The notes under the pieces: model-generated | Seen by the model: the letters and a program-made list of their open reading frames with translations, nothing else | What the model was told of the DNA's origin: nothing | Databases searched by the model: none | In this document: positions 1,681 to 39,699 of the stretch, piece by piece | How positions within the stretch are numbered: the stretch's first letter is position 1 | Layout of the letters: each line of letters opens with the position of its first letter | DNA from: Oligoflexia bacterium | GTDB lineage: Bacteria > Bdellovibrionota_G > JANQFH01 | Direction: 5' to 3' | NCBI GenBank assembly: GCA_028277945.1 | Contig: JANQFH010000056.1 | Coordinates: 1-64,000, forward strand | DNA: 64,000 bases | Made by a program: the position numbers and the translations under genes

Positions 1681-2793
1681 TTATTTGAGCCTAGTTAAAA
1701 AAGTCGGTGCAGGAGCTACATTGACATTTTCACCCGAAACATAGTCCTTCTTGCCACGACAACTTATTTGCCACGCTTCACATTTTGGGAAGCGTTCTTT
1801 GAGATACTTGAGCCCCTTACCTATCTGGTCATCATTCCATTTGCATTCGATGAACTGAATCGGTTCCTTATCCTCAAGAATGACGAAGTCGACCTCACGA
1901 AGATCTACGTCTCTAAAGTAACGTAGTTCAAGATCGCGCCCCTTTGAATCTTGCTCGAAATGAACCCATTTGAGCAAATGACATGCAACGAGATTCTCAA
2001 AACGCTTAGGTTGGTCCTTCACTAGAGTCCAATCAAAATGGTAGTGCTTTTGCTCTTTCTTGACGGCTCGGATTTTTGGTGAACCAAATGGGGAAAGGCG
2101 AAACATCGCATAAAGACGCTCAAAGATATCCAGCCACTTCGACAGGGTTTTGTGCGTAACTTGCAAATCTTCACGTAGCGCATTGATCGAAAGCGGAGCA
2201 CCAACCAGCTCTGGTAGACGCAACATGAGAAGCTCCAGTTGTCCCAGATCGCGAACCTGCTCCACACCAACCAGATCCTCGCGAATCAGCCTGGTACGAT
2301 ACTCTCTCGTCCACCTCTTGGCCTCGACCTCCGAAGCACTCAGGAAGGGTTCGGGAAAGCCACCCAGTTTAAGGAGATCCATCAGGTCTTTGCTAGTCTG
2401 CATCTTGAGTTCAGCAAAGGAAAGTGGATGCAGTCTTAGATAGTGGTAGCGACCCTGCAACGAATCACCGCCAAAACGATAATAGTCGAGCCTAGCGCTT
2501 CCAGTTACCAATATATGACGTGCCGTCTTATGCTTGTCATACAGTCCTTTTAAAACATTGCGCCACTGGCGGTATTTGTGGATTTCATCAAAGACCCAGA
2601 GCATGACATTCGGGAGTTCCCTTTTGAGGATTTTTTCCCGGTGTTCTGGGATGTCCCAGTTGAGATAGCCCCTCTCTGACTTCCCCAAGACCTGTTTCGC
2701 AAGGGTCGTCTTACCCACCTGCCTGGGGCCGCCTACAAAGACCATTTTGCGGTCTAGGTCTTTTCGAATCTGTTTATGGAGGTACCGTCGCAT
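1681..2793 (-). CDS. AAA ATPase with DUF4143 domain, intact copy
   Basis: This 370-residue protein starts with a P-loop (VGGPRQVGKTTLAKQ, about residues 20-34) and has a Walker B-like VMLWVFDEIHKYRQW near residue 70 and a sensor-like ILVTGSARLDYY. The C-terminal DUF4143 half ends with a nuclease-fold-like segment (DFVILEDKEPIQFIECKW). Proteins of this widespread family are ATPases of poorly defined role, often found in accessory DNA. A second copy at 10596-11630, on the same strand, has about 85-90% residue identity by eye but many silent differences, so the duplication is not recent. The pair brackets the metallophore operon. Confidence 0.85.
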   Translation of the reverse strand: MRRYLHKQIRKDLDRKMVFVGGPRQVGKTTLAKQVLGKSERGYLNWDIPEHREKILKRELPNVMLWVFDEIHKYRQWRNVLKGLYDKHKTARHILVTGSARLDYYRFGGDSLQGRYHYLRLHPLSFAELKMQTSKDLMDLLKLGGFPEPFLSASEVEAKRWTREYRTRLIREDLVGVEQVRDLGQLELLMLRLPELVGAPLSINALREDLQVTHKTLSKWLDIFERLYAMFRLSPFGSPKIRAVKKEQKHYHFDWTLVKDQPKRFENLVACHLLKWVHFEQDSKGRDLELRYFRDVDLREVDFVILEDKEPIQFIECKWNDDQIGKGLKYLKERFPKCEAWQISCRGKKDYVSGENVNVAPAPTFLTRLK

Positions 2794-3022: not shown

Positions 3023-3322
3023 ATGACTATGCGACACCATAAAGCGACTTGTCTGATAGCGGCCTTGCTGTTTCTTTTTGGCCAGGCTTATCTTTTTGCG
3101 CACAGTCTTGAACATGCAGGAGAGCCCGAGCATGAAGATACAGACTGTGAAATCTGTCTTATTATTGGTGTAGCTGGATCGGTTGAACCGCCAACAAAGG
3201 TTGAGGCACCTACTCCATACCAATATATAGTCGCTTTTTCCGCCCTTCCAGGTAAACCCAATTTCACGAAAGATTCATCGACTGAGCCTGCAAGAGGCCC
3301 TCCTACTTTTCTTCTGTCCTAG
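3023..3322 (+). CDS. Small secreted His/Cys protein (DUF2946-like)
   Basis: A 99-residue protein with an N-terminal hydrophobic segment (CLIAALLFLFGQAYLFA) is followed by a short metal-ligand-like stretch HSLEHAGEPEHEDTDCEICL. A short signal segment followed by H..H...C..C is characteristic of DUF2946-type small proteins, many of which sit next to metal-uptake genes; the assignment is tentative. Translation may begin at the ATG at 3023 or 3029. It lies 76 bases before the metallophore operon on the same strand and could be its first gene, although a stem-loop lies in between. Confidence 0.55.
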   Translation: MTMRHHKATCLIAALLFLFGQAYLFAHSLEHAGEPEHEDTDCEICLIIGVAGSVEPPTKVEAPTPYQYIVAFSALPGKPNFTKDSSTEPARGPPTFLLS

Positions 3323-3398: not shown

Positions 3399-4091
3399 AT
3401 GAAAACCATTATTTACCTGCGCGGTATTACAGCGTTGCTCTTTATCATCTCGGCCATCAATATTTTCGTTGCCGGTACTAACCATGTCGCCGCCCAATCG
3501 ATCGAAGATGAATCTGGCCCACCTATCAATCCTGGTATGCGATTTATATATACGGACTTTGACCCACACAGGTCGAAACCCGTCGAGAGACATATGTATC
3601 GCGGTCTCGTAGTTGGCGAACGTACTGTAAGACAGGCTGAACAGGCTGAGGAGGGATCGGGTGACAAAGTGAATAGTTTTCACTGCATCTGCTACGCACC
3701 TGGGCCTACCAGCCAACATTTGTTTGGCTACGGTGTAAATTTACCTGGTTTGGTCGATGAACAGGGCCGTCCCAGAGGGCCTCGCACGTATGATGAAGCC
3801 ATCGAGCACTGCCCTGTTCACTTTTTTGGCAACTCCATTGCCGAAGCACGAAAAAAGAAAGCTGAATCGGACACTGACGTCGTTGGTAGCGACGAGTATG
3901 TACCGGAAAGACAATACCTTCTTTTTAATCGTGGGCTTGTCAAAGGCGCAGAGCCCGTAACCGACCGCGAAAGCCCTGAATATGGAAAGCAGCATTTCAG
4001 CGCAACAGATCAAGGGCCATATTTCGCGCCCATATTCTTTTGCGGGGTCATTGCCGATCATCATCCTCCTAAACCAGAAACTGGGAAGTAG
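3399..4091 (+). CDS. Secreted Cys/His-containing protein of unknown function, first gene of the metallophore operon
   Basis: The 230-residue product has a hydrophobic N-terminal segment (ALLFIISAINIFVAG) and so is probably exported. I do not recognise the family. Several Cys/His pairs stand out: FHCICYAP, IEHCPVHFFG and, near the C-terminus, FFCGVIADHHPP. These would suit metal or haem binding, or disulfides. It is preceded by a good ribosome binding site (GGAGAAAAG) and ends 8 bases before the ABC ATPase. Its position suggests a periplasmic partner of the transporter; that is inference from context only. Confidence 0.6.
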   Translation: MKTIIYLRGITALLFIISAINIFVAGTNHVAAQSIEDESGPPINPGMRFIYTDFDPHRSKPVERHMYRGLVVGERTVRQAEQAEEGSGDKVNSFHCICYAPGPTSQHLFGYGVNLPGLVDEQGRPRGPRTYDEAIEHCPVHFFGNSIAEARKKKAESDTDVVGSDEYVPERQYLLFNRGLVKGAEPVTDRESPEYGKQHFSATDQGPYFAPIFFCGVIADHHPPKPETGK

Positions 4092-4099
4092 GTACTACT

Positions 4100-4819
4100 G
4101 TGGAAACAACACTTGCCATAAAGCTTGACGGTCTTAGCAAATCTTTTGGAAATCAGAAGGCAGTTGTCGATCTGAATCTTAGCCTTAGTCAGGGTGAAGT
4201 GTTTTGCCTACTTGGCCCAAACGGTGCGGGTAAAACCACGACAATCAACCTAATACTGGGAATCCTCCCGCCCAGTAGCGGTCGGGTCACGGTTTTGGGC
4301 CACGAGATGGAGCAGAACGCCACCACAGCTTTGAGACAGGTCTCTTTTATTCCTGAAACGGTTTCGCTCTACCCTCAATTGTCAGGCTTGGAGAACCTCA
4401 CCTACTTTGCCGAACTGGCCGACAACAAAAAGATTGATTTAGCTCGTGCTGCAGAAGTTCTGAATCAGGTTGGTTTGTCTGAAAAGGAATATAAGCAGCC
4501 GGCGGGTAGCTATTCAAAGGGAATGAGACAGAAAGTTTGCCTGGCTCTAGCATTTTATCGCAATGCTCAAATCCTTGTTCTGGATGAGCCCACCTCTGGA
4601 CTCGATCCGGGTTCGGCAAATGAGTTTCTCCGTCTTATTAGCGAGGCTCGTGATCGAAATCAGACGGTATTCATGGTCACCCATGACATTTTTCGTGCCA
4701 AGGCCATTGCAGATCGCATTGGAATCTTGCGATCGGGGCGTCTGGTTCAAGAGATTGATGCGCAAAGTATATCCGTCACCCGCATCGAAGAGATTTATCT
4801 GGAGTACTTCAATGCTTAA
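4100..4819 (+). CDS. ABC transporter ATP-binding protein (ABC-2/CcmA-like)
   Basis: All nucleotide-binding motifs are present: Walker A GPNGAGKTTT, signature YSKGMRQK, Walker B ILVLDEPTSGLDP and the switch His in MVTHD. Length (239 residues) is typical of ABC-2 exporters and of NosF/GldA-like subunits. A GTG start at 4100 is used with GGAAGTAGG upstream. The stop overlaps the next start by 8 bases, so it surely pairs with the two permeases that follow. The chain of overlaps continues into the metallophore biosynthesis genes. Confidence 0.9.
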   Translation: METTLAIKLDGLSKSFGNQKAVVDLNLSLSQGEVFCLLGPNGAGKTTTINLILGILPPSSGRVTVLGHEMEQNATTALRQVSFIPETVSLYPQLSGLENLTYFAELADNKKIDLARAAEVLNQVGLSEKEYKQPAGSYSKGMRQKVCLALAFYRNAQILVLDEPTSGLDPGSANEFLRLISEARDRNQTVFMVTHDIFRAKAIADRIGILRSGRLVQEIDAQSISVTRIEEIYLEYFNA

Positions 4820-6251
4820 ACGCATCCAAGCATGGCTACGGCCACCGGTGACGATTGCCCGCAAGGACTGGACTTGGGCAAAATGCAACAACCTAGTTTT
4901 GTCGACAGTCATCGTGGTGTCTTTATTAAGCGGCTTTTCATTAATCGCCCACTTTGACTTCCAAAAGGAGAACAATCGTCAGGCCAAAGAACTGCAACAT
5001 CTGGTTGAACAACAGTGGGACCAGCAACCCGCAAGGCACCCCCACCGTGTGGCTCATTTTGGCCATTTTGCGATCAGACAGCTATCCCCCCTTAGCTTTA
5101 TCGACAATGGCGTCAATCCGTTCGTAGGAAACGCCACCTTTTTGGAAGCACATCAGCTGAATTCGACCAACTTCAGTGCCGCGGTCGATTCGCCCAATAC
5201 ACTTCGATTTGGTGAGCTCACTATTGGCTCCATCATTCAGCTGTTTTTGCCCCTGTTCATTTTCTCCCTTCTGTTTGGACAGTATCGACAAGAGCGTGAC
5301 GGTCAGCTTCTACGTATGCACCACGTTAGCGGAGTCAGCTCGTTTCAGTTTCAGGTGGGAAAACTCGTTGGCAATCTGTTGATTGTGTTAACGATTATCT
5401 TTCCTACTTGGCTAGTTTGTTTGGCTCTAATGCTCCGTATTGAGGTTATCCCTACCATATGGCCAAGATTTTGGCTGTTGACACTGCTGTACCTTGTCTA
5501 CCTTTTCGTTTGGAGTGGCTTTGCCGTGCTTGTTTTCACAAGGCTCAAGAACCCGCGCAAAGCCTTCGCCACGCTTTTGGCCTTGTGGACACTGTTCTTT
5601 ATTATAGTCCCACGGCTTCTTCCAGTGGCGGCCGAAACTGTATATCCGGCGCCGACAGCTGCAGAGTTCAACCGAAAGCTCCATCGGGCTGTATCGGCGA
5701 GTATCAATGCTCACAACATTTCAGATCAGCGGTTCATCGCTGAAAAAGAGCGCCTTCTCAAACGACACGGAGTTGAGCGTGTTGAGGACCTTCCGTTCAA
5801 CTTTCGGGGATTTGGCATGTCGATTGGTGAAGAGAGCTCTACAGAGATCTTCCGTAGGCAGATCGCCCAACTCGAAGCACGACACATTCAACAAAATCGT
5901 TTCATCGAGACCTTTGGAATCGTCAATCCACTCATAGCCGTACGTTTCCTTTCTCAACTCTTGGCGGGAGCAGGTTACCATCACGCGTTCGACTTCGATA
6001 AGCAAGCAGAGCAGCACCGCTATCAATTTGTGCAAAAGCTAAACGAGCTTCACATGCACGAAATAGCGTACGAGAATGATCGCGATCAAAAGCTGACCAG
6101 CCAGTTTTGGCAAGAGTTTAAAGATTTTCAGTACGACCTCCCATCTCTTCCGTGGGTTAGTAAGCGTGCGCTCTATTCCAGCTTAGCCTTATTCGTTTGG
6201 GTGATCCTGACCTTCGTGGGACTTGCAACTTTCAAAGTGAGGGTGCAATGA
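4812..6251 (+). CDS. ABC-2 permease with large extracytoplasmic domain (DUF3526-like), first of two
   Basis: The start at 4812 (MLKRIQAW) is chosen because it overlaps the ATPase stop. The 479-residue protein has a first membrane segment near residue 30-50, a ~100-residue soluble loop, then a cluster of four to five helices (for example IIQLFLPLFIFSLLFG), a second long soluble domain and a final helix (LALFVWVILTFVGLATF). This layout is typical of DUF3526 ABC-2 permeases. The second soluble region has many charged residues and several His. It pairs with the next gene, which has the same plan. Confidence 0.8.
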   Translation: MLKRIQAWLRPPVTIARKDWTWAKCNNLVLSTVIVVSLLSGFSLIAHFDFQKENNRQAKELQHLVEQQWDQQPARHPHRVAHFGHFAIRQLSPLSFIDNGVNPFVGNATFLEAHQLNSTNFSAAVDSPNTLRFGELTIGSIIQLFLPLFIFSLLFGQYRQERDGQLLRMHHVSGVSSFQFQVGKLVGNLLIVLTIIFPTWLVCLALMLRIEVIPTIWPRFWLLTLLYLVYLFVWSGFAVLVFTRLKNPRKAFATLLALWTLFFIIVPRLLPVAAETVYPAPTAAEFNRKLHRAVSASINAHNISDQRFIAEKERLLKRHGVERVEDLPFNFRGFGMSIGEESSTEIFRRQIAQLEARHIQQNRFIETFGIVNPLIAVRFLSQLLAGAGYHHAFDFDKQAEQHRYQFVQKLNELHMHEIAYENDRDQKLTSQFWQEFKDFQYDLPSLPWVSKRALYSSLALFVWVILTFVGLATFKVRVQ

Positions 6252-7684
6252 CTCGTATAGCAGCCCTTTTCCGCTACCAATTTAGAATATTCACCCGCGA
6301 GTCAATGACGTGGGTTCTGGTGGGATCGTTTGTAGCCCTATATGCAGTTGCCACCTTCAATGGCAAACAAAAGGTCCAGGAGTTCAGCAGTTCGCAATCT
6401 CAACATCAGAAGCTCATCATGGAAAGGAATCAGGCCTATCTTGAACATCGATTCAGTGACAATGAGAAGTTGGGACGCTTTTTTTATTATGTTCAGGCAC
6501 CAATCCAATACCACCCACACCCACGAGCTGCCCTTAATCTTGGTCGCCTTGATCTATATGAAGACATTCCCGGAATTACCCTGCATGGAATCTACTCACA
6601 GGTTTTCAATGCTGGGAGAAAGAATCCTTTCAGCGCTCTTAGTGGCCATTTTGATCTAGCGTTTGTCCTCATTCATCTCGTCCCCCTGCTGGTTTTGCTC
6701 TTTGTTTTCGACCTTCGACAACGTGAGGTGGAACTGGGCCTCCGATCCTTGCTCAACGGACTGGGAATTCGAGATTTAAGCTGGATGCTAAGTAAATGGT
6801 TCATTCGCCTGGTATCGGTCGGAGGACTCGTTTCCGGTTTGAACTTGGCTGTGTTCTACTATTTTGGCTTACCTTTGGACAGCTTCTTTCTATTTTGGAG
6901 TCTGGCTTCCGTACTCTACATCCTTTTCTGGATGCTCGTCGGCTTGGCTATCACCTCCTTTAGGCTACAGTCCACGACAAACCTGGTTGTTTCTCTGATC
7001 GCCTGGATTCTTCTTTGCATTTTGACGCCCGCCTCCATTCACCTCATGAGCGGTAGCCACAGCTCCGCACCTTCCGGTATTCAAATCGCCACTGAGCATC
7101 GCTACAAGTTACACGCAGCTTGGGACCACCCCAAACAGGATACGTTCGCGGCATTTGAATTTACAGGTGATGACCAAGCAGCCTTCACAAAGGAAAACGA
7201 CACGTTTACGTGGGGCTGGTATTTCGCAATGCATAGCGTCGCTGACCACGCCGTCACCAGCCACGTTCATGACTACTTCAAATCTGCATTGGAGCGCGAC
7301 AATTGGATAGAGCGTGCTAGCCGCTATTTGCCTCCACTGCGTTTGCAAACGGCGCTAGATAAGCTCTGCGGAGTCACCCTCGAAAATCAAGTCGACTTCA
7401 AAAGAGATATCGTACGTTTCCACCAAGAGCTAAAGCAACACTACTATCCAGCCATTTTTGACGATCGGGTTTGGAACAAGGCTCAGCTAACCTCAGAACT
7501 CACGCAACTCTCTACAAAGAAAATAACACCGAACGTAACAAACGGCGGTCTATTGCGAATGGCACCGATCGTGGTGTGGTGTTTGGGACTTACACTCTTC
7601 ACGTTTTTGATTTTTTCGAACCTAACTACCTCAAGGAGAAATGGCCATGCCATTGCATCAAAAAGACTTAAACGGGCCGCATAA
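6248..7684 (+). CDS. ABC-2 permease with large extracytoplasmic domain (DUF3526-like), second of two
   Basis: Start (ATG) and previous stop overlap as ATGA. The 478-residue protein repeats the architecture of its neighbour: N-terminal helix (WVLVGSFVALYAVATF), soluble loop, a block of helices (LAFVLIHLVPLLVLLFVF and following), a large hydrophilic domain and a last helix. The two presumably form a heterodimer with the ATPase at 4100. The 3' end overlaps the next gene by 44 bases, which ties the transporter translationally to the metallophore enzymes. Substrate and direction of transport are unknown. Confidence 0.8.
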   Translation: MTRIAALFRYQFRIFTRESMTWVLVGSFVALYAVATFNGKQKVQEFSSSQSQHQKLIMERNQAYLEHRFSDNEKLGRFFYYVQAPIQYHPHPRAALNLGRLDLYEDIPGITLHGIYSQVFNAGRKNPFSALSGHFDLAFVLIHLVPLLVLLFVFDLRQREVELGLRSLLNGLGIRDLSWMLSKWFIRLVSVGGLVSGLNLAVFYYFGLPLDSFFLFWSLASVLYILFWMLVGLAITSFRLQSTTNLVVSLIAWILLCILTPASIHLMSGSHSSAPSGIQIATEHRYKLHAAWDHPKQDTFAAFEFTGDDQAAFTKENDTFTWGWYFAMHSVADHAVTSHVHDYFKSALERDNWIERASRYLPPLRLQTALDKLCGVTLENQVDFKRDIVRFHQELKQHYYPAIFDDRVWNKAQLTSELTQLSTKKITPNVTNGGLLRMAPIVVWCLGLTLFTFLIFSNLTTSRRNGHAIASKRLKRAA

Positions 7685-8423
7685 CGACCCTTGTACAGAG
7701 ATTATCCGGATATTTGGGCATGAAATTAAGGACCTCTTTCATTCCAAAAACCCAGATTTAAATCGAGTCGAAGACACCCTCTCTCGATTTGCCGAAGCAC
7801 TGACGCGATCAGATCTTTGTTATCACGACAACTTGGAACTAGATCCGCATGTGAACCAGATTGCACAGTGGGCAGCCCACTTGTGTGGTTTTTTGGAAAC
7901 TCAGGTCGCCCAGGGCAAACTCAAGCTAGAAGAGAGTTCTTATTTTCGGGAAATAGTGAGAATCGGCCATCAAGAAGGTCAAATTGGCGGGATCCAACCA
8001 CAATCAAAGGTTTGCTTTATTGGTTGTGGGAGCACACCGGTTACCGCACTATGTTTGGCTGAAGCATTTGGCTGTCAGATTACCTGTGTTGACATTGATA
8101 CTAAAAGTTTAGCTGCGGCCGAAAGCTTCTTGCGAAGCAGCTCGAAAACAAGTTTTCGTTTTAGCCTACCTGATTCACAGGTTGACCTCTCGAATTTTAC
8201 ACATATTTTTTTAACCGGCCTGGTCCCAGACAAGGACCGATATCTTGCACAAATTGCTCCATCCCTGAAACCTGGCGGTAAAGTTATCATGCGCTACGGA
8301 ACCGGTTTGAAGAGTTTGTTTACCTTTCCGCTGCCTGTCATCGATACAGAGGTCTGGCAAGTCGTACGCTTGCTTGAACCTCCCGGCAATTTCTTCAATA
8401 CGGCTTTCCTAGAAAAGGTTTGA
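7641..8423 (+). CDS. cntL: Nicotianamine synthase-like enzyme (CntL type, opine metallophore)
   Basis: The C-terminal half is a SAM-binding fold of the nicotianamine synthase family: VCFIGCGSTPVTALCLA, then CVDIDTKSLAAAESFL, FLTGLVPDKDRYL and the family hallmark PGGKVIMRYGTGLKSLF, ending in the PPGNFFNTAFL segment that matches the NAS C-terminus. Bacterial CntL enzymes transfer the aminobutyrate part of SAM to histidine in staphylopine and pseudopaline synthesis. A reductive partner follows directly. No histidine racemase (CntK) gene is nearby, so L-His would be the expected substrate, as in pseudopaline. Start is 7641 or 7647, with AAGGAGA upstream. Confidence 0.85.
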   Translation: MAMPLHQKDLNGPHNDPCTEIIRIFGHEIKDLFHSKNPDLNRVEDTLSRFAEALTRSDLCYHDNLELDPHVNQIAQWAAHLCGFLETQVAQGKLKLEESSYFREIVRIGHQEGQIGGIQPQSKVCFIGCGSTPVTALCLAEAFGCQITCVDIDTKSLAAAESFLRSSSKTSFRFSLPDSQVDLSNFTHIFLTGLVPDKDRYLAQIAPSLKPGGKVIMRYGTGLKSLFTFPLPVIDTEVWQVVRLLEPPGNFFNTAFLEKV

Positions 8424-8431
8424 GATTCAAT

Positions 8432-9718
8432 ATGAACGGTTTGGGAAATACTCTTGTTATGGGTGGAGGTGCCGCAGGCTTAAGCTTTGCTGCGTTTCTA
8501 AAATCACTTGGAGACTCGAAGGTAGGGCTATGGTTGCGTGATTCACAGAGAGGCAAGAACAAGATCCGAGAAATTAGGGAGAACCACTCAACGGTCCGCT
8601 TACGAACAAAACAAGCTAACTTGAAAGAGTATGAAGGTGGCTGTCGATTCGATCAGATCAGCTCCAATATGTCTGAGTTTAAGAACTATGAAACCGTAGT
8701 GATTTGTCTGCCTGCCTGCGCCTATGTTGACGTAATTCCACTTCTGAGTGGATGGGATGAATTGTCTAAAGTGAAACAGATGATACTAGTGGCGGCTCCT
8801 TTAGGAGCAAATGCACTGGTTAAGAAATCACTTGGTCCGGTCGCTAACGAGATCGATATTCTCTCACTTTCTTCCTTCATCGCTGCCGTAAAATTTGGTG
8901 CCTCGGCTACCGAATTAATCATTAAAGGAAAGAAGCGGCGCATCTACATCTCACGTCCTAAAAACCCTGCTTTGACCTCCTCATTGACTCGTCTATTAGC
9001 TAGCTGGGAAATAGATATCGTCTGGCTAGAACGCGCTATTGAGGTGGAGGCTAGAAATATCAATATCTACGTTCACCCGCCCTTTGTTATCAATCGACGG
9101 GTCCTAGACCGAATTTACCTGCATCAGGAACATCCCGTTTATCTGTATCGCTTCGAACCTGAGGGCCCTCTTTCCCTAACTGCTTTTCGCACTATGCTCA
9201 ATCTCTACAATGAATCAACAGACATTCTTGATCGCTTTGGTGCCAAAACATTCAACCTGCTCGCCTTTCTTAACGATGACAACTACTCCCTTCCAGAATC
9301 TTACCTTAGCCGCCACGATATAGACTCTTTTCCCAAACAGAGTTTCGAAGGACGTCTTGCGTTACTGATGGCTCGCTATGGCGGCCTTTTGGTCGACCCC
9401 TACTCAGAACCGGATGCTAAATCAGGTGAGTATTTCCCCTTTTCCAAAGTCTCCATTCCTGTCGCATACGCCCTAGATGACGGCGAATATCAACTACCGA
9501 GAAGTCCTGTTGAGGAGTATCTGCTTTTGCAGACGTTGATGTTACTGAGCCGTGCATGTTCCACTGACGCCAAGACATTGCATGAACTAGCCGAGCGCGT
9601 AGAACAGTATACAGTCGAATTTGAACAAGCACGAAAGGTAAGACTCACACCTTCCCTCAGCCAAATTAAATCTTTCGCCAGAAATTTAGCCGATGCAACG
9701 ATCGACGCACATCTATAA
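8432..9718 (+). CDS. cntM: Opine metallophore dehydrogenase (CntM type, DUF2338)
   Basis: The 428-residue protein starts with a Rossmann GGGAAGLSFAAFL motif. It carries the conserved blocks of CntM/pseudopaline dehydrogenase that I recall: YETVVICLPACAY, VEARNINIYVHPPF, YRFEPEGPLSLT and LLVDPYSEPD. These NAD(P)H-dependent enzymes condense the CntL product with pyruvate or 2-oxoglutarate. ATG at 8432 is preferred over the TTG at 8420, and the gap to cntL is 8 bases. The synthase-dehydrogenase pair identifies the operon as an opine-type (staphylopine/pseudopaline-like) zinc or nickel metallophore pathway. Which keto acid it uses cannot be read from sequence alone. Confidence 0.88.
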   Translation: MNGLGNTLVMGGGAAGLSFAAFLKSLGDSKVGLWLRDSQRGKNKIREIRENHSTVRLRTKQANLKEYEGGCRFDQISSNMSEFKNYETVVICLPACAYVDVIPLLSGWDELSKVKQMILVAAPLGANALVKKSLGPVANEIDILSLSSFIAAVKFGASATELIIKGKKRRIYISRPKNPALTSSLTRLLASWEIDIVWLERAIEVEARNINIYVHPPFVINRRVLDRIYLHQEHPVYLYRFEPEGPLSLTAFRTMLNLYNESTDILDRFGAKTFNLLAFLNDDNYSLPESYLSRHDIDSFPKQSFEGRLALLMARYGGLLVDPYSEPDAKSGEYFPFSKVSIPVAYALDDGEYQLPRSPVEEYLLLQTLMLLSRACSTDAKTLHELAERVEQYTVEFEQARKVRLTPSLSQIKSFARNLADATIDAHL

Positions 9719-10559
9719 AAACGGAATTTTCTTAGCCGTATTGGCCTCGCTGTTATTCAGCTTGATGAATCTATCCGTGAAGATGGTGGCTGATGACATT
9801 CCGGTATCCGAAATCGTATTCTTTCGCTCACTTTTTGGCCTGGTTGCTGTTCTGTTGATTATAAAGCGGCGCAGGACCTCACTGCGTGGAAAGAGACCCT
9901 GGTTACTTGTACTGCGTGGGCTCCTGGGAGCAACGGCCATTTGGGGAGGCTTTTTAACAATATCCAAGATCAAACTGGGAGATGCCGCAATCCTTGCCAA
10001 CACCAGCCCCCTATTTGTTGTTTTATTTGCAGCCTACTTTCTTGGTGAACGACTATCGCGGAAAAACCTTTTGCTCTTAGCAGCAGCTCTGGTGGGTGCA
10101 CTACTCGTGATCAAGCCCGCTGCAATGACAACCTATACGTTATATACCTGGGTAGGGCTGGGTACCGCCGTCGTGTCAGCAGGGGCGTCCGTTTCCATAC
10201 GCGCGTTAACCAAAGACACGTCGACTCACCTCATTATCTTTTATTTTATGGGTATTACCTGCTTGGCCACCCTTCCACCAACGGTTGCACAGTTTGTTTG
10301 GCCGACTCCAGTCGATTGGCTTTGGTTGCTACTTGTCGGACTAAGCTCGTTGATCGCCCAGTTCGTATTAACGCAAGCCTATCGATACGCTCCGGCCGGA
10401 AATGTGTCGACAGCGCGGCTAAGTAGCGTGGTGTGGAATATTTTTTGGGGCGTTTTGATCTGGCATGAATTTTTGGATCTTTTCTCGTTGTTGGGTGGAG
10501 GTTTGATCATCGCTAGTTGCCACTTGCTCTACCGCCAAAACAACGGCAAACAATTATAG
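9693..10559 (+). CDS. EamA/DMT-family exporter (CntI-like)
   Basis: A 288-residue protein with ten predicted membrane helices and the two EamA repeats (for example SEIVFFRSLFGLVAVLL and the second half from YTWVGLGTAVV). It overlaps cntM by 26 bases. In Pseudomonas the analogous position is filled by CntI, an EamA permease that exports pseudopaline, so export of the finished metallophore across the inner membrane is the most likely role. It is the last gene of the operon. Confidence 0.85.
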   Translation: MQRSTHIYKNGIFLAVLASLLFSLMNLSVKMVADDIPVSEIVFFRSLFGLVAVLLIIKRRRTSLRGKRPWLLVLRGLLGATAIWGGFLTISKIKLGDAAILANTSPLFVVLFAAYFLGERLSRKNLLLLAAALVGALLVIKPAAMTTYTLYTWVGLGTAVVSAGASVSIRALTKDTSTHLIIFYFMGITCLATLPPTVAQFVWPTPVDWLWLLLVGLSSLIAQFVLTQAYRYAPAGNVSTARLSSVVWNIFWGVLIWHEFLDLFSLLGGGLIIASCHLLYRQNNGKQL

Positions 10560-10595: not shown

Positions 10596-11630
10596 CTAAA
10601 CCAGTGATGAGAGTAGTTCGGTAGCTGGACAAACACGAATGTCCTCATCTGACACGTAATCCTTCTTACCTTTACAGCTGATCTGCCAGGCGTCACACTT
10701 TGGAAATCTCGCCTTCAAATAACGCAAACCTTTGCCTAGCGGATCATCGGACCATTTACACTCAACAAACTGAATTGGTTTCTTGTCCTCAAGGATAACA
10801 AAGTCAACCTCACGCAAGTCAACATCTCTAAAATAGCGCAATTCTAAATCTCGACCTTTGGTATCCTGCTCATAGTGCACCCACTTTAGTAGATGGCAAG
10901 CAACAAGATTCTCAAAGCGCTTTGGCATATCTTTGACCAACGTCCAATCAAAGTGGTAGTGTTTCTGTTCTTTTTTCACGGCCCGAATCTTCGGTGAGCC
11001 AAAGGGCGAAATGCGAAAGACGGCGTACAAACGTTCAAAGATATCCAGCCACTTTGCAACGGTTTTATGGCTCACCTCTAGATCCTCTCGCAAAGCATTA
11101 ATAGAAAGCGGTGCGCCAACCAGTTCCGGTAGACGCAACATCAATAGTTCTAGCTGGCCAAGGTCACGCACTTGCTCGACACCAGCCAAATCCTCGCGGA
11201 TGAGCCGGGTACGATACTCTCTTGTCCACCGTTTGCTTTCGACTTCCGAGGCATTTAAGAAGGGTTCCGGGAACCCGCCTAGTTTCAACAAATCCATGAG
11301 ATCTTTATTTGACTTCAGCTTGAGTTCAGCCACTGATAGCGGATGCAAACGAAGATAGTGGTATCGCCCCTGTAAGGAATCCCCGCCAAAGCGGTAGTAA
11401 TCCAGTCTGGCACTTCCGGTGACCAGAATCTTTCGCTGCTTATGGTGTTGATCGTAGAGCCCCTTGAGCAGGTTGCGCCAACGCCGGTTTTTATGGATTT
11501 CATCGAAAACCCACAGATCGACGCTCGGGAGCTCTCGTTTAAGAATGCGTTCCCGATGCTCGGGGATATCCCAGTTCAGGTAGCCCTTGTCCAGCTTCCC
11601 AAGAATCGGTTTGGCCAGCGGGGTTAGATC
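10596..11630 (-). pseudogene. AAA ATPase/DUF4143, truncated second copy without P-loop
   Basis: The frame is open from 11630 to the stop at 10596 and matches the intact copy at 1681-2793 from the residues just after its Walker A motif (LAKPILGK..GYLNWDIPEHRE) to the end. An in-frame TAA (complement of 11631-11633) lies upstream and the roughly 30 N-terminal residues including GKTT are gone, so ATP binding should be lost. An internal ATG at 11348 would give 250 residues. The breakpoint coincides with an imperfect hairpin (GGGGTTAGATC at 11620, GATCTGGCCCC ending at 11645), suggesting an insertion or deletion end. Confidence 0.82.
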
Positions 11631-11762
11631 TTAGGATCTGGCCCCTTGTTTTACTACCCCGAAGGTTGTCTCTTTTTCATTTATTAAGTAAATAATATTA
11701 TATAGTTATGTTGGAAATTGGCGTCTGATGGGTGGCGTATGTTAGAAATCTAATCGCTTGAA

Positions 11763-11817
11763 ATCGATAATAACTTGTATTCTTATTATCGATTCATTAT
11801 TATTTCGATAATAATGA
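11763..11817. promoter_or_regulatory. Two tandem inverted repeats upstream of the Fic gene
   Basis: ATCGATAATAA (11763-11773) and TTATTATCGAT (11783-11793) form a perfect 11-bp inverted repeat. One base later TCATTATTAT (11794-11803) and ATAATAATGA (11808-11817) form a 10-bp hairpin with a TTCG loop. The unit CGATAATAA occurs three times (two direct, one inverted). The block ends 33 bases before the Fic start and looks like an operator. The rest of the gap 11646-11850 is AT-rich and otherwise featureless. Confidence 0.55.
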
Positions 11818-11850
11818 TCTGGCTTATTTCCCCCTTTTACAAGGCTTAAA

Positions 11851-12987
11851 GTGATACACGGAAAAAACATAAAGTGTGCTGAAGGCTATACTGCTTTCGT
11901 TCCAAGTTCTCTGCCCCCGCCACTTGAATGGAACAAAACGACGCTCAAAGGCTTATCCGACGCTGACCGCAATATTGGCAGACTTGCTCAAGTCGGGAGC
12001 CAATTACCCAATCCTCATCTGCTCATTCGAACGTTTGTCCGCCAGGAAGCCGTGCTTTCAAGCCGTATTGAAGGAACGCAGACTTCCTTTTCTGAACTGA
12101 TGTCTAACGAGGCAGGAGCATCAACGGAACAGGATAAACAAGACCTGAAAGAAGTTGAAAACTACATTGTTGCCCTTGAATACGGCATGGAGCGCGTTCA
12201 GTCGCTTCCCATTTCAAGCCGATTAATACGAGAGTTGCATGAAAAACTTATGCAGGGTGTGAGAGGAGATTTCGCAACACCGGGTGAATTTAGAAAGTCG
12301 CAAAACTGGATTGGCGTCGCAGGTTGTACGTTACAAAATGCGACCTACGTTCCACCACCACCAAATCTTGTAATAGAATGCATGGGAGCTTTAGAAACTT
12401 TCTTTCACGAATCTGACCTACCGCCTCTTCTCACTGTCGGTTTAGCACACCAACAGTTTGAAGCCATTCACCCATTCTTAGACGGTAATGGCCGTGTGGG
12501 GCGACTGCTCATTATTCTTTATTTGATTGAGAAGGAAATACTTCCATCACCTATTCTCTATTTAAGTGCTTTTTTTGAAGCAACCAGACAAGAATACTAC
12601 GACCGGCTTCTTGCGGTAACTAAGTCGGGTAAATGGAACGAGTGGTTGCAATACTTTCTAAATGGTGTTGCAAGACTTTCTGATGACGCCATGAAACGGA
12701 TTCACCGCCTATTGAATTTGAACCAACAGTGGAAGGACCAATTTCCAAACCAATCGGATGCCAACGCTATTCAACTTATTGACCAATTGCTTGCAAATCC
12801 TTTTGTGACGGCTAAATCATTCTCCAAGAAAACAGGGGTTGCGTTCACCACCGCGCAAAGGGCCATTGACAAACTTGTTGATGAAAAGATTCTTACACAG
12901 ACGACCGACGCTAAACGTAATAAGCTTTACTGCGCCAAAGAGATATTAGCGATTGTTGACGAGAAATTTCTTCTAACAAAATTCTAA
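11851..12987 (+). CDS. Fic/DOC family protein (AMPylase-type) with C-terminal winged helix
   Basis: The catalytic Fic motif HPFLDGNGRVGR is intact. The N-terminal part has the inhibitory-helix motif SSRIEGTQTS, which in class II/III Fic proteins holds the enzyme in an autoinhibited state. A C-terminal winged-helix region (FSKKTGVAFTTAQRAIDKL) suggests that it also binds DNA, perhaps the tandem inverted repeats just upstream. Translation starts at a GTG (11851). Such solitary Fic proteins transfer AMP to proteins; the target is unknown. It stands alone between two mobile remnants, so horizontal acquisition is likely. Confidence 0.9.
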   Translation: MIHGKNIKCAEGYTAFVPSSLPPPLEWNKTTLKGLSDADRNIGRLAQVGSQLPNPHLLIRTFVRQEAVLSSRIEGTQTSFSELMSNEAGASTEQDKQDLKEVENYIVALEYGMERVQSLPISSRLIRELHEKLMQGVRGDFATPGEFRKSQNWIGVAGCTLQNATYVPPPPNLVIECMGALETFFHESDLPPLLTVGLAHQQFEAIHPFLDGNGRVGRLLIILYLIEKEILPSPILYLSAFFEATRQEYYDRLLAVTKSGKWNEWLQYFLNGVARLSDDAMKRIHRLLNLNQQWKDQFPNQSDANAIQLIDQLLANPFVTAKSFSKKTGVAFTTAQRAIDKLVDEKILTQTTDAKRNKLYCAKEILAIVDEKFLLTKF

Positions 12988-13001
12988 CATCGGGTTTCCC
13001 A

Positions 13002-13023
13002 GTACCCGCTTCCTTTTGATACT
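13002..13023 (+). repeat. Left 22-bp inverted repeat of the RAYT element
   Basis: Perfect inverse match to 13702-13723. Confidence 0.75.
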
Positions 13024-13052
13024 TTGGCATAGACGTTGCTTTTTAGTCCAAT

Positions 13053-13703
13053 ATGCCACGACGAGCTCTAATCCGTACTGCTGAATTTCCGTATCATATT
13101 ACAGCTCGATCTAACAACCGAGAGTGGTTCTACTTGCCCACCGACAAATGCTGGCAAGTCTTTGACCAAAAATTAGCCATCGTTTCAGATCGTTATGAGG
13201 CAAGAGTCATCACCTTTCTCCTGATGTCCAATCACTTTCACCTTCTAATGAAAACTCCTAGGGCCAACATTGACGCAATTATGAATTATCTAATGAGGGA
13301 GGTAAGCCGAACCATTGGGACGAAAACCGGTCGCATCAACCACATCTTTGGGGGTCGTTACAAGTGGTGTGTCATTCGTTCTGAGCCCTATCTTGCCCAT
13401 GCCTACAAATATGTCTGCCGCAATCCGGTCGAAGCCGGGATCGTCAAACGGGTTGAGCAATACCGTTACTCAACCTTAAACGTCCAAATGGGAAGATCTA
13501 TGGCTTCATTCCCAATTCATGATGTCGGAGAGTTCTCTTGCTACATTCCTATTACCCTGAGTGAAAAGCTCAACTGGCTAAACAGTCCCTATAGCTCTGG
13601 ACAGCGGGACCGAATCAGACGTGGCCTTCGTCGCACTACCTTTACGCTCAGCACACGCCGAAACGATCAAAAACATTCCTTGCCACCACCCACGCCCTCC
13701 TAG
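13053..13703 (+). CDS. REP-associated tyrosine transposase (Y1_Tnp, IS200-like)
   Basis: A 216-residue HUH nuclease: the metal-binding HxH is in LLMSNHFHLLMKTP and the likely nucleophile Tyr lies in the helix AYKYVCRNPVEAG. The N-terminus (PRRALIRTAEFPYHITARSNNRE) is typical of the RAYT group. It is enclosed by 22-bp inverted repeats and should act on them. Frame and motifs are intact, so it may be active. Confidence 0.88.
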   Translation: MPRRALIRTAEFPYHITARSNNREWFYLPTDKCWQVFDQKLAIVSDRYEARVITFLLMSNHFHLLMKTPRANIDAIMNYLMREVSRTIGTKTGRINHIFGGRYKWCVIRSEPYLAHAYKYVCRNPVEAGIVKRVEQYRYSTLNVQMGRSMASFPIHDVGEFSCYIPITLSEKLNWLNSPYSSGQRDRIRRGLRRTTFTLSTRRNDQKHSLPPPTPS

Positions 13704-33450: not shown

Positions 33451-34533
33451 TTATTGGTTTGTTGATAGGGCTGATAGTGACTTGCTGCGCCTAGTGGTGG
33501 CCTCCTGCCACAGGTTTGTAAGCGTACCCCAGAGGCTGGTGCCGACTGTTTGCAGGAATAGCGTGTTGTCGGAGAGCTCACGCACAAGACGCCGTTGTGC
33601 CTTTCCCAGGTTGTGATAGGGCATGCTGGGAAAGAGGTGGTGGGTAGCGTGATAGCGTAGCCCTACAGGTGCCCACAGCGCTGTGATAAAAGGGTTACCT
33701 GGAATGTTCACGGAGTCCAAAAACTGCTCGGGTATATCCATATTGTGGTCTTGTGGATTGCGGTAACGATGCGCAGCCAGTGTCCGCAACGAGTTCAACA
33801 GAAAGACCAAAACCGCCATCAAGTACCAGAGCACCAAAACCGCATAAGAAAGTTTTCCTGAAATCACCAGGGTAATGGCTATAGCCCCGTAGAGAAAGGT
33901 GCAGAACTCCTGCAGCTTCCAATACTTGTTTTCATTCGCCTTGGGCGGCGGTCGCCGGTAGGTCGGATCGATACTGAGCGATGAAGCTCGCTCCCAGAGG
34001 ATACGTCGCAGACCCTTATGCAAGTAAGAGATCGGTGTACAAACAATAAAGCGAACTGCCATGAGTAGTGGCAAGATAACGATCTCGAGAAGGTAGAGCA
34101 AAATTTTTACTGGCGAGTCTATGGCAAAGGGAAGGTACTCGCCGTCCTCTTTGGTGCCATACACATCCCTCTTGTGATGATCGAGATGAACGCCTTGGTA
34201 GGTAAAGGCAGGTATCATCAGAGGAAAGCCACAGATCACGTTCCAGACAATCCGAAAGAGCTTAAAGCTCTCCCTTTTCAGATGCGCCAGCTCATGGATA
34301 AAGATCACGGAGCGGTAGAGCGCTAATGAAGTAACCAAATAAGCGACAACTTGCCAGAGAGACAAGCTTGGTAATGCGAGGGTAACCACAAAGCCAGCCC
34401 ACCCAAGAGCGATGTGAAAGAGAAAATCGAGCCAGTAGATGCGTGGGTTGGGCTGCATCAGATCTCTGACGAGCTCCCGTGCCTCCTGCAGAGGAAATGG
34501 GCTACTGGTGGTTTTAGCGGCTAATGGACTCAT
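33451..34533 (-). CDS. Membrane fatty-acid desaturase/hydroxylase family protein
   Basis: The three histidine boxes of the di-iron family are present: FIHELAHLK, GVHLDHHKRD and HATHHLFPSMP. 360 residues and at least four membrane helices are predicted. It could desaturate or hydroxylate a lipid. It starts overlapping the mobA stop by 20 bases, so it belongs to the Moco operon; the functional link is unknown. Confidence 0.87.
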   Translation of the reverse strand: MSPLAAKTTSSPFPLQEARELVRDLMQPNPRIYWLDFLFHIALGWAGFVVTLALPSLSLWQVVAYLVTSLALYRSVIFIHELAHLKRESFKLFRIVWNVICGFPLMIPAFTYQGVHLDHHKRDVYGTKEDGEYLPFAIDSPVKILLYLLEIVILPLLMAVRFIVCTPISYLHKGLRRILWERASSLSIDPTYRRPPPKANENKYWKLQEFCTFLYGAIAITLVISGKLSYAVLVLWYLMAVLVFLLNSLRTLAAHRYRNPQDHNMDIPEQFLDSVNIPGNPFITALWAPVGLRYHATHHLFPSMPYHNLGKAQRRLVRELSDNTLFLQTVGTSLWGTLTNLWQEATTRRSKSLSALSTNQ

Positions 34534-35113
34534 ACTCTTTTAGATCGTCTTGTGTGTTGATGTTCCATAATGACTCTCGGTTAGGATCAACCCTATCCAG
34601 CTCTCTCGCCTCTAAGTACGTCACCCTTAAACCAACCTCGAGAAGGGCCTTCAAGTCATGTCGGTGTCGCCTAACCAAGTCATGGCAAATGGGCGCGGTT
34701 CTAGACGAGTAGACCCCTGGCAGTGGCGATGGCCGTACGTTTTTTAGGGGCAGGACAATATCACAATCGCGGCTGGCACGCCAGAGTGCCTCGATCATCG
34801 GCAGTGAGATGAAGGGCATGTCACAAGCCAATAGCAGCAGGCGTTCGCAGCACAGCTGCTTCCAAACGCTGCTGACGGCGGGCAACGGGCCGGCCTGAGG
34901 CTGCTGATCTGAAATCACTGGATAGCCAAAAAACGACAGCCTTTGCTGGGGGCCGGAAAGAACGATCTCGAAGTTGGCCTGAGAGAGCTTGTCACAAAGG
35001 TTGGTGATCAAGAACTCTTTTCCTACCCTGATAAAGGCCTTGTCACGACCAAAGCGACGGCTACGACCTCCTGCTAAAACCACGGCAACTGGACGATCAC
35101 CATAATCAAGCAT
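34514..35113 (-). CDS. mobA: Molybdenum cofactor guanylyltransferase
   Basis: The N-terminal nucleotide motif LAGGRSRRFGRDKA and the MobA blocks LLLLACDMPFIS and LLEVGLRVTY are present. Start 35113 overlaps the moaE stop. It adds GMP to molybdopterin to make the MGD cofactor, as used by DMSO-reductase family enzymes such as the one at 40042. At about 200 residues it matches the usual length. Confidence 0.88.
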   Translation of the reverse strand: MLDYGDRPVAVVLAGGRSRRFGRDKAFIRVGKEFLITNLCDKLSQANFEIVLSGPQQRLSFFGYPVISDQQPQAGPLPAVSSVWKQLCCERLLLLACDMPFISLPMIEALWRASRDCDIVLPLKNVRPSPLPGVYSSRTAPICHDLVRRHRHDLKALLEVGLRVTYLEARELDRVDPNRESLWNINTQDDLKEYESISR

Positions 35114-35546
35114 CAACCGGGACCCCAAGCCAGCGACTCTCGCCAACGGCATAGTGCTCCTTTTTCCAGATGGGCACCTCTCTCTTTAGCTCCTCAATAC
35201 AGTAGTGTGCTGCCATAAAAGCCTCTTGTCGATGTGCCGCTGAAACCGCCACACAGACAGAGACCTCGCCAACTTTGAGATAACCTATTCGATGCACGAT
35301 GCGAATTTCATGGACAGCGAATTTTTCGCGCGCCTTTGTGGCAATTGCATCAAGCACCTTCTCGGCCATGGATTGGTATGCCTCATAGGTGATGCCAACG
35401 ACCTCTCTGCCAGCATGATGGTTACGCACCTTACCCACAAACAAAAACACGGCACCAGAGGCGGGGTCCACCATCGCCGTCTCCACCGTGGCGGCAGAGA
35501 TAGGTTGGGCCGTCACGTAGCAACGCTTTTCTAGATCGCTATGCAT
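35106..35546 (-). CDS. moaE: Molybdopterin synthase large subunit
   Basis: The 146-residue protein shows the MoaE pattern: GAVFLFVGKVRNHHAGREV, the segment IVHRIGYLKVGEVSV, HRQEAF and KKEHYAVGESRW. With MoaD it makes the dithiolene. It lies 5 bases after moaD. Confidence 0.92.
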   Translation of the reverse strand: MHSDLEKRCYVTAQPISAATVETAMVDPASGAVFLFVGKVRNHHAGREVVGITYEAYQSMAEKVLDAIATKAREKFAVHEIRIVHRIGYLKVGEVSVCVAVSAAHRQEAFMAAHYCIEELKREVPIWKKEHYAVGESRWLGVPVDA

Positions 35547-35551
35547 TAAGC

Positions 35552-35797
35552 TTAACCTCCAGCTACAGGAGTCATGAACACAACCTGATCACCATCGTGC
35601 AGCGGGTGTTGCAGCGAGCCCATGCTCTCATTAACTGCCACCCGCAAATAGCTGGAAGTCTGTTCAAACTCCTTAGGGTCTGGCAAGAGGTTCCGCAGTA
35701 AATCTAAGCTGGTAGCACCCTCTTGCAGCACCACTTTTTCCTCTTCTTTGCCAAACCTCTCTTTTAACTGCGCGAAGTATCGCACCGTTACCTGCAT
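35552..35797 (-). CDS. moaD: Molybdopterin synthase small subunit
   Basis: An 81-residue ubiquitin-fold protein with the essential C-terminal double Gly (MTPVAGG) and the beta-grasp segment VTVRYFAQLKERFGKEEE. It is thiocarboxylated before sulfur transfer. It overlaps moeA by 10 bases. Confidence 0.92.
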   Translation of the reverse strand: MQVTVRYFAQLKERFGKEEEKVVLQEGATSLDLLRNLLPDPKEFEQTSSYLRVAVNESMGSLQHPLHDGDQVVFMTPVAGG

Positions 35798-37026
35798 AGG
35801 CCACCTCCATACAAATGGATCACCTCTACCGTGTCGCCAGCCTTGGTTTCGCTAGCCGCTGGAACATGGAGCAGGACATCAGCGTGCGCCAGCGAACTAA
35901 GGAGATGCGAAGCCTGCCGCCCGAGCGGCTCGACAATGGTTTCGCCGTTGTTCGACAACACCCTACCTTTAAGAAATTGATCGCGTTCGCGGTTTAGAGG
36001 TAGTGGCTGTGCTAACCGCTCTCTACTACGCTTTAGTGCACAGTCCCGAGCCCCCATCAACCCCATGAACAACGGGTAGAGATAGAGCCAGAAACAGACG
36101 AAAACCGAATAGGGATTACCAGGCAGCCCCATGACCAAAACACTGTCCTTTCTACCCAAATAGAGCGGCTTGCCTGGCTTTTGCGCCACTCGCCAAAACA
36201 GCTGATCGACGCCGAGGCTTTGCAACACTTTTTTGGTATAGTCGTGTTCGCCCACGGAAACCCCACCGCTGATAACAACCACATCTGCCTCTTGCAGAGC
36301 CACGGATACGCTCTCATGAAGCCGTTGCGGAGAGTCGCCAACACGCTCAAGACGATATGGAGGTATGCGCAGCTGTTGTAAACTGTTTGCTAACATCACC
36401 GCATTGCTATCGAAAATCTTTCCGGGAGAGAGCTGCGCCATCGACGAAACCAGTTCATCGCCAGTTACTAAGATCGAGACACGCGGCTTTCTAGCAACCG
36501 TTACTTCAGTAGTACCGACGGAGGCAAGGAAGCCCATCACTGCTGGTGTGAGGGTGGTTCCCTGCTCGGCTGCGAGCTCGCCACGGTTTATGTCCTCACC
36601 GGATTTACGTACATGGCAACCTTGATCCAAGGCATGGGCAAGAACAATCTGCTTATCTGTTTCAATCACATCTTCCTTTTTTACCACCGTATCAAAGCCA
36701 ACAGGCAGCGGCGCGCCCGTCATGATACGGATCGCTACCTGCGCAGCATCACACTCGATGGGTGGTTGACCGGCACGAACCTCACCCTTGATATGCAAGC
36801 GAACCGGCGAGCTCTGAGATGCAAATTTAATCTCCTGCCAACGCAGGGCAAAGCCATCCATGGCCGCATTGTCAAAACTAGGCAGTGACAGGGAGGCCTG
36901 TACAGGCCGCGATAGTATCCTGCCAAGACCGTCGACAAGGGCGACCGTCTCAGCACGGTCCGTAAGCTCAAACAGCTCCGCGGCCTGTTGAGCCACAAGG
37001 TTTATGGCGTTTTCCACAGATATCAT
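35788..37026 (-). CDS. moeA: Molybdopterin molybdenumtransferase
   Basis: Start ATG 37026 (MISVENAINL) overlaps the TSUP stop by 4 bases. The MoeA blocks are clear: SFDNAAMDGFAL, RAGQPPIECDAAQVAIRIMTG, VSILVTGDELV, VVVISGGVSVGEHDY and LGLPGNPYSVFV. It inserts molybdate into adenylylated molybdopterin. About 412 residues. Confidence 0.92.
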   Translation of the reverse strand: MISVENAINLVAQQAAELFELTDRAETVALVDGLGRILSRPVQASLSLPSFDNAAMDGFALRWQEIKFASQSSPVRLHIKGEVRAGQPPIECDAAQVAIRIMTGAPLPVGFDTVVKKEDVIETDKQIVLAHALDQGCHVRKSGEDINRGELAAEQGTTLTPAVMGFLASVGTTEVTVARKPRVSILVTGDELVSSMAQLSPGKIFDSNAVMLANSLQQLRIPPYRLERVGDSPQRLHESVSVALQEADVVVISGGVSVGEHDYTKKVLQSLGVDQLFWRVAQKPGKPLYLGRKDSVLVMGLPGNPYSVFVCFWLYLYPLFMGLMGARDCALKRSRERLAQPLPLNRERDQFLKGRVLSNNGETIVEPLGRQASHLLSSLAHADVLLHVPAASETKAGDTVEVIHLYGGGLCR

Positions 37027-37775: not shown

Positions 37776-37779
37776 GGCT

Positions 37780-39681: not shown

Positions 39682-39699
39682 GTTAACCTCTTGCCAATT

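What the first reader, a model, noticed from the sequence alone, without database searches (positions are those of the whole stretch)
3399..10559. Opine metallophore operon translationally coupled to an ABC-2/DUF3526 transporter
Seen in sequence: cntL-like, cntM-like and EamA-exporter genes follow an ABC ATPase, two DUF3526-like permeases and a secreted Cys/His protein; all junctions are 8-base gaps or overlaps (44, 26 and 4 bases among them). Known: characterised CntLM systems pair with a nickel/peptide-type ABC importer (staphylopine) or with a TonB receptor and EamA exporter (pseudopaline). A DUF3526 ABC-2 pair in the same transcript is not a setup I know. Inference: it could handle recovery, export or inner-membrane passage of a new opine metallophore.
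Basis: partly seen in the sequence, partly recalled or inferred. Interest (0 to 1): 0.8.

Follow-up and report, generated by a model that had tools for sequence, protein, structure and literature searches.

The report
Metal-scavenging operon with unusual ABC transporter
A little-known bacterium carries one gene run that joins the enzymes for making a small zinc-scavenging molecule to an ABC transporter type that elsewhere sits beside outer-membrane metal receptors, suggesting a candidate for the still-missing inner-membrane step of zinc recovery by such molecules.

Summary
Profile searches confirm NAS/CntL, staphylopine-type dehydrogenase (CntM) and EamA genes directly behind an ABC ATPase and two DUF3526 permeases, with 4- to 44-base overlaps or 8-base gaps. 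The run probably starts earlier, at 3023, with a small secreted His/Cys protein. That protein (CxxC, ...RGPP end), the ATPase and the two permeases form a recognisable cassette: 10 of 12 related loci have a TonB-dependent receptor beside it. Its best-studied likely counterpart is Caulobacter's Zur-repressed ABC-2 system ZnuGHI. The first permease carries a conserved HPHRxxH motif in its first extracytoplasmic loop. CntM is very divergent (at most 34-35% identity), has the alanine associated with alpha-ketoglutarate use, and no racemase is present: a pseudopaline-like product is predicted. None of 84 other cntM loci carries DUF3526, and a published survey names only Opp and FecCD importers. In the genome no TonB receptor and no ZnuA were found, but about 30 Opp-type binding proteins were. 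Most likely: an opine zincophore operon with a ZnuGHI-like recovery step. Substrate and direction are inferred, and the arrangement is seen in one genome only.

The parts
3023..3322 (+). Small secreted His/Cys protein (99 aa; signal-like start, HSLEH, CEIC, C-terminal ARGPP); probable first gene of the operon; counterpart of the small CxxC...RGPP/RAPP proteins that precede relatives' operons
   Evidence: same C-x2-C ... R[GA]PP-end pattern in L121, L126, L127, L131; 0 hits in 1.66 Mb of cntM loci. L121's copy is DUF2946; the window's protein matches no family
3399..4091 (+). Orphan secreted Cys/His protein (230 aa; HCIC, HCPVH, HH). Lies where relatives have a TonB receptor
   Evidence: no Pfam/NCBIfam match; no relative in 385 genomes or plasmids; single-sequence model uninformative, pLDDT 44
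4100..4819 (+). ABC ATPase, ABCA/NosF-like
   Evidence: PF00005; closest solved chains ABCA7/ABCA3/ABCA4/ABCA1 and NosF
4812..6251 (+). DUF3526 ABC-2 permease a (479 aa), HPHRxxH motif in extracytoplasmic loop 1
   Evidence: PF12040, ABC2_membrane_2; motif and hydropathy; profile hits NosY at E 2.9e-5
6248..7684 (+). DUF3526 ABC-2 permease b (478 aa)
   Evidence: PF12040 56.1 bits; profile-profile match to the permease a family, probability 99.9
7641..8423 (+). CntL-like nicotianamine synthase (260 aa), AAGGAG before its ATG
   Evidence: PF03059 E 5.8e-12; CntL model NF033601 58 bits, under its equivalog cut-off 350; PDB CntL E 1.8e-10
8432..9718 (+). CntM-like opine dehydrogenase (428 aa), Ala at the residue aligned with SaCntM D150
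   Evidence: PF10100 E 2.8e-84; PDB pseudopaline dehydrogenase E 1.6e-59; residue 150 and tree
9693..10559 (+). EamA/DMT-family transporter, predicted metallophore exporter (CntI/ZrmD-type)
   Evidence: PF00892 E 3.6e-31; EamA/DMT gene follows cntM in Gram-negative loci

Best explanation
This is an opine-type zincophore operon in which a DUF3526 ABC-2 transporter of the TonB-receptor-associated (ZnuGHI-like) kind stands in for the usual Opp or FecCD importer. CntL joins an aminobutyrate unit of S-adenosylmethionine to L-histidine; CntM reductively condenses the product with alpha-ketoglutarate, giving a pseudopaline-like chelator; EamA moves it to the periplasm, from which it leaves the cell. 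The loaded complex returns across the outer membrane by a route other than a detectable TonB receptor (a porin is the simplest guess). The two secreted His/Cys proteins take part in periplasmic metal handling, and the ABC-DUF3526 complex, through the histidine motif on its extracytoplasmic face, takes up the metal or the loaded chelator or strips the metal from it. Shown: gene identities, order, junctions, conserved motifs, absence of detectable TonB receptor and ZnuA genes. Inferred: one transcript, zinc as the metal, the exact product, the transport direction and the outer-membrane route. I hold the metallophore operon as such at about 0.9; the confidence given is for the recovery role of the ABC-2 part.
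For: CntL-CntM-EamA order and families. Alanine at the SaCntM D150 position, which PMC7438024 links to alpha-ketoglutarate; no racemase gene in the run. Permease a of all 12 keeps [HDN]P[HN]xxxH in loop 1, and E112 and H114 (window numbering) are invariant in a 10-row alignment; five distant DUF3526 loci lack the motif. Small CxxC...R[GA]PP proteins precede four of the relatives' operons and the window's. Caulobacter ZnuGHI (ABC-2 ATPase plus two ABC-2 permeases next to TonB receptor znuK) is Zur-repressed (PMC4176598); Caulobacter is the only one of 14 control genomes with DUF3526 and is not among the 11 with ZnuA, and the window's genome also has DUF3526 but no ZnuA. EamA already accounts for export. 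Exact Fur-type palindromes lie upstream of two Bacteroidota relatives' operons.
Against: ABC-2/type V transporters are mostly exporters or mechanical machines, and no binding protein of a known family is encoded here. No other cntM locus has DUF3526 and the cassette's relatives have no cntLM, so the functional link rests on adjacency in one genome. No TonB receptor was found in the genome. Opp-type binding proteins, the kind used by staphylopine systems, are abundant. No Caulobacter-type Zur box near the operon. That ZnuH/ZnuI are DUF3526 proteins could not be checked directly, and ZnuGHI import itself is putative in the paper.
Confidence: 0.5

Rival explanations
1. The ABC-DUF3526 complex works outward: it exports or recycles the metallophore from the inner leaflet or periplasm (alone or with an outer-membrane channel), with EamA as a parallel or first step, much as P. 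aeruginosa is proposed to pair an import system with a MacB-type exporter under Zur.
For: ATPase nearest to ABCA and NosF-type proteins, permease profile nearest to NosY: a class known mostly for export. Precedent for a Zur-regulated exporter of a metallophore complex: PA4063-4066 (PMC11481552).
Against: EamA/DMT genes already fill the export slot in Gram-negative cntLM loci seen here and in PMC7438024; relatives of this cassette sit beside uptake receptors, not biosynthesis genes.
Confidence: 0.2
2. The opine complex is imported by one of the many Opp/Nik-type ABC systems encoded elsewhere, as in staphylopine systems; the DUF3526 complex is a separate, co-regulated metal-handling machine (NosFY-like, loading or moving metal in the periplasm) that does not touch the opine.
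For: About 30 SBP_bac_5 matches in the genome; 69 of 84 other cntM loci carry Opp-type genes; the best, though weak, solved relative of the permease is NosY.
Against: None of the Opp genes was shown to be near cntLM or to bind an opine; the 44-base overlap, with its own ribosome site, places the start of cntL inside the end of the permease gene, which argues for a tight unit.
Confidence: 0.2
3. Two unrelated cassettes were brought together by chance in a rearrangement-prone stretch and share only read-through transcription.
For: The run is bracketed by two same-strand DUF4143 genes, 75% identical over 859 bases, with a Fic gene and a Y1-type transposase beyond; the combination is unique among 84 cntM loci and among the five genomes of the phylum.
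Against: Overlapping coding ends, even G+C (0.46-0.49 per gene) and the long divergence of CntM do not look like a recent accident; both halves are metal-linked families.
Confidence: 0.1

Closest known systems
Pseudopaline cluster cntOLMI (zrmABCD) of Pseudomonas aeruginosa
   Same: cntL-cntM-EamA order; closest solved CntM is pseudopaline dehydrogenase; Ala at the residue-150 position; no histidine racemase; diderm host
   Different: No TonB receptor gene in the run or found in the genome; an ABC-DUF3526 pair and two secreted His/Cys proteins precede cntL; CntM only 34% identical
Other opine zincophore clusters (staphylopine, bacillopaline, yersinopine, Vibrio type)
   Same: NAS plus opine dehydrogenase plus exporter in one run
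   Different: Those mostly carry Opp/Nik or FecCD importers (PMC7438024); here neither is in the locus
Caulobacter ZnuGHI with TonB receptor ZnuK (PMC4176598)
   Same: ABC-2 ATPase with two ABC-2 permeases; Caulobacter carries DUF3526
   Different: ZnuGHI has a neighbouring TonB receptor and a Zur box and no cntLM; identity of ZnuH/I as DUF3526 not checked
TonB receptor-ABC-DUF3526-DUF3526 operons (Hymenobacter, Spirosoma, Eleftheria, Aureibacter, Blastomonas, Comamonas, Novosphingobium, Variovorax plasmids)
   Same: Same ABC and permease pair with the loop-1 histidine motif; small CxxC...RGPP protein upstream in Eleftheria and Comamonas
   Different: TonB receptor present, no cntLM or EamA
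NosFY of nitrous oxide reductase maturation
   Same: Nearest solved ABC-2 permease and among the nearest ATPases
   Different: Match is partial and weak (E 2.9e-5, 131 positions); two different permeases here; no nos genes seen nearby

Membership tests
Opine-like zincophore gene cluster | CntM (staphylopine-type opine dehydrogenase) | tested here: met
   PF10100 E 2.8e-84; PDB relatives
Opine-like zincophore gene cluster | Nicotianamine-synthase-like CntL directly upstream of cntM | tested here: met
   PF03059 46 bits; 8-base gap
Opine-like zincophore gene cluster | Export system (MFS, EamA or MatE) within six genes | tested here: met
   EamA overlaps cntM by 26 bases
Opine-like zincophore gene cluster | Opp- or FecCD-type importer within six genes (usual, but absent in pseudopaline clusters) | tested here: not met
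   Only ABC-2/DUF3526 genes adjoin; the one FecCD lies on another contig
Opine-like zincophore gene cluster | Zinc-responsive expression; secreted zinc-binding opine | not testable with these tools
   No culture; no recognised Zur box
Staphylopine system proper (NCBIfam equivalogs) | Scores over the CntL and CntM equivalog cut-offs | tested here: not met
   58 vs 350 and 204 vs 675 bits
TonB-receptor-associated DUF3526 ABC-2 cassette (ZnuGHI-like) | ABC ATPase followed by two DUF3526 permeases | tested here: met
   same set in relatives
TonB-receptor-associated DUF3526 ABC-2 cassette (ZnuGHI-like) | [HDN]P[HN]xxxH loop-1 motif of permease a | tested here: met
   RHPHRVAHFGHF in the window; 12 relatives have it, 5 distant DUF3526 loci do not
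TonB-receptor-associated DUF3526 ABC-2 cassette (ZnuGHI-like) | Adjacent TonB-dependent receptor | tested here: not met
   None in the run; no PF00593 or PF07715 in the genome, 95.6% complete. L127 and L131 also lack one nearby
TonB-receptor-associated DUF3526 ABC-2 cassette (ZnuGHI-like) | Zur operator as in Caulobacter | tested here: not met
   No TGTTATNNNATAACA-like site near the operon with up to 2 mismatches; also absent from the Novosphingobium and Variovorax loci
NosFY | NosY/NosF homology over the whole protein with nos maturation genes | tested here: inconclusive
   Partial NosY match E 2.9e-5, NosF among nearest ATPases; no nos genes seen in the window's ORFs

The most novel reading that the evidence does not exclude
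The ABC-DUF3526 complex with its secreted His/Cys partners is a new class of metallophore recovery machine for diderm bacteria: the inner-membrane partner of an opine zincophore, working without a TonB receptor, and a pointer to the missing inner-membrane step of pseudopaline-type systems.
Probability: 0.3. Interest if true: 0.78.

Novelty: new variant of a known kind. Interest (0 to 1): 0.57.

Why it matters
How an opine zincophore or its metal crosses the inner membrane of Gram-negative bacteria is open: a 2026 paper on pseudopaline states that a dedicated inner-membrane transporter 'remains to be discovered' (PMC12890022). A run that welds cntL-cntM-EamA to an ABC-2 type with TonB-receptor-associated, probably zinc-regulated kin offers a concrete candidate type and a simple deletion test.

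Tried and rejected
Zur box: scanned the window and DUF3526 relatives for the Caulobacter/E. coli motif; nothing near the operon. A different Fur-like palindrome (TGCAACNNNGTTGCA) occurs upstream of Bacteroidota relatives (exact in L120 and L122; two-mismatch hits in L118 and L119, a number expected by chance over the whole locus) but not in the window's promoter region. Relatives of the orphan Cys/His protein: none on plasmids or in 385 genomes; its single-sequence model is too poor to search with. TonB receptor or ZnuA elsewhere in the genome: none. Considered and dropped: staphylopine system proper (scores under the equivalog cut-offs). Tree of CntM: the window's branch is so long (3.28) that its place beside Pseudomonas and Yersinia is unsafe. 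Literature on DUF3526: no paper in the library uses the term; a search for a Bacteroidetes Zur box gave nothing relevant.
Full report
What is there. From 4100 to 10559 on the + strand lie an ABC ATPase, two permeases that both carry DUF3526, a nicotianamine-synthase-like CntL, a staphylopine-type opine dehydrogenase (CntM; PF10100, E 2.8e-84) and an EamA transporter. The closest solved structure of the dehydrogenase is pseudopaline dehydrogenase (E 1.6e-59); of the synthase, S. aureus CntL (E 1.8e-10). Both score well below NCBI's staphylopine equivalog cut-offs, so this is not the staphylopine system itself. Start codons refined by reading the junctions give an 8-base overlap (ATPase/permease a), ATGA (permease a/b), 44 bases (permease b/cntL, with AAGGAG right before the cntL ATG), an 8-base gap, and 26 bases (cntM/EamA). 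I add one gene: 3023-3322, a 99-residue protein with a signal-like start, 76 bases before 3399.

The biosynthetic half. CntM has alanine at the position aligned with S. aureus D150. Morey and Kehl-Fie (PMC7438024) report that alanine goes with alpha-ketoglutarate and aspartate with pyruvate. No racemase gene is in the run. A pseudopaline-like compound from L-histidine, aminobutyrate and alpha-ketoglutarate is therefore predicted; this is inference. CntM is the longest branch in a tree of 88 (3.28 changes per column; best identity 34%), so its place beside Pseudomonas and Yersinia enzymes is unsafe.

The transporter half. DUF3526 proteins were followed independently of cntLM. On plasmids, the nearest relatives lie in loci with a TonB-dependent receptor, an ABC ATPase and two DUF3526 genes. 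Five more distant DUF3526 loci lack it. E112 and H114 of the window's numbering are invariant and D98 nearly so in a ten-sequence alignment. Ten of the 12 loci have a TonB receptor beside them; the two without (L127, L131) have a small CxxC...RAPP protein in front. The same small-protein pattern stands before the Eleftheria and Comamonas operons (the former is DUF2946) and before the window's (3023-3322); it was not found once in 1.66 Mb of cntM neighbourhoods. I read 3023-3322 plus 4100-7684 as one such cassette, in which the receptor's place is taken by the orphan protein 3399-4091.

Link to zinc. In Caulobacter an 'ABC-2 type transport system', znuGHI (ATPase plus two permeases), next to the TonB receptor gene znuK, is directly repressed by Zur and induced by zinc depletion (PMC4176598). 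Caulobacter is the only one of 14 control genomes that has DUF3526, and it is not among the 11 controls with a ZnuA-type binding protein. Novosphingobium, of the same class, has a TonB receptor on the opposite strand followed by ABC-DUF3526-DUF3526 (L123). That ZnuH and ZnuI are themselves DUF3526 proteins was not checked directly, and import by ZnuGHI is called putative in the paper. In two Bacteroidota relatives an exact Fur-type 15-base palindrome, TGCAACNNNGTTGCA, lies upstream of the operon (0 of 200 shuffles each). The window's promoter region has neither this nor a Caulobacter-type Zur box.

Is the combination known? The published survey names only Opp and FecCD importers beside cntLM, and none in pseudopaline clusters (PMC7438024). 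In 84 cntM loci gathered here, 69 have Opp-type genes, 12 FecCD and none DUF3526 (an earlier count of the fetched loci agrees). The scan used one peptide motif and kept the best 80, so rarer forms may be missed. Within the host's phylum (five genomes held) only this genome has CntM or DUF3526, and CntM occurs in 2 of 385 genomes sampled across the domain. The arrangement is thus so far a single case.

The rest of the genome. No TonB-receptor barrel or plug and no ZnuA were found in this 95.6% complete assembly; one FecCD permease sits elsewhere without a neighbouring binding protein. An alginate-export-type outer-membrane porin in the window indicates an outer membrane. There are about 30 SBP_bac_5 (Opp/Nik-type) matches, which keeps an Opp importer in trans as a serious rival. 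Two Fur-family regulators are present, one beside a Dps-like gene.

How it most likely works. Made by CntL and CntM and exported through EamA, the opine binds zinc (or cobalt/nickel) outside. The complex returns through a porin or another receptor not recognised here. In the periplasm the His/Cys proteins and the histidine-bearing face of the ABC-DUF3526 complex receive the complex or its metal, and ATP hydrolysis drives uptake or release. The ATPase is of the ABCA/NosF type and the permease profile finds NosY (E 2.9e-5), so a NosFY-like mechanical role is as possible as translocation, and export cannot be excluded. I put the metallophore operon itself near 0.9 and the recovery role at 0.5.

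Verdict. It is a new variant of a known kind: an opine metallophore operon carrying an ABC-2/DUF3526 transporter whose relatives sit beside metal-type receptors. Its value is that it suggests a type of inner-membrane partner for a step that work on pseudopaline calls undiscovered (PMC12890022); its weakness is that it rests on one genome.

Noticed in passing
window 1681-2793 (-) and 10596-11850 (-): Two DUF4143-type ATPase genes, 75% identical over 859 bases, bracket the operon as direct repeats; the second reads on in frame beyond the listed ORF start. A possible site for gain or loss of the run by recombination.
   Followed up: partly
own genome, contigs C59 (107-117 kb and 303-316 kb), C9, C10: About 30 SBP_bac_5 (Opp-type) binding-protein matches, many in tandem arrays; it seems a lot for a 2.9 Mb genome.
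   Followed up: no
L120:4137-4151, L122:670-684: Perfect Fur-type palindrome TGCAACNNNGTTGCA upstream of TonB receptor-ABC-DUF3526 operons in Spirosoma and Aureibacter: a candidate metal-regulator box.
   Followed up: partly
Names are by eye from the sequences.
   Followed up: no
window 40042-46165 (+): Molybdopterin oxidoreductase (PF00384) with an iron-sulfur subunit, a further secreted subunit and a TorD-like protein (dissimilatory reductase-like set), not far from molybdenum cofactor genes at 34514-39774.
   Followed up: no
window 11851-13703 (+): Fic/DOC protein and a Y1-type (IS200-like/REP) transposase just downstream of the second DUF4143 gene.
   Followed up: partly
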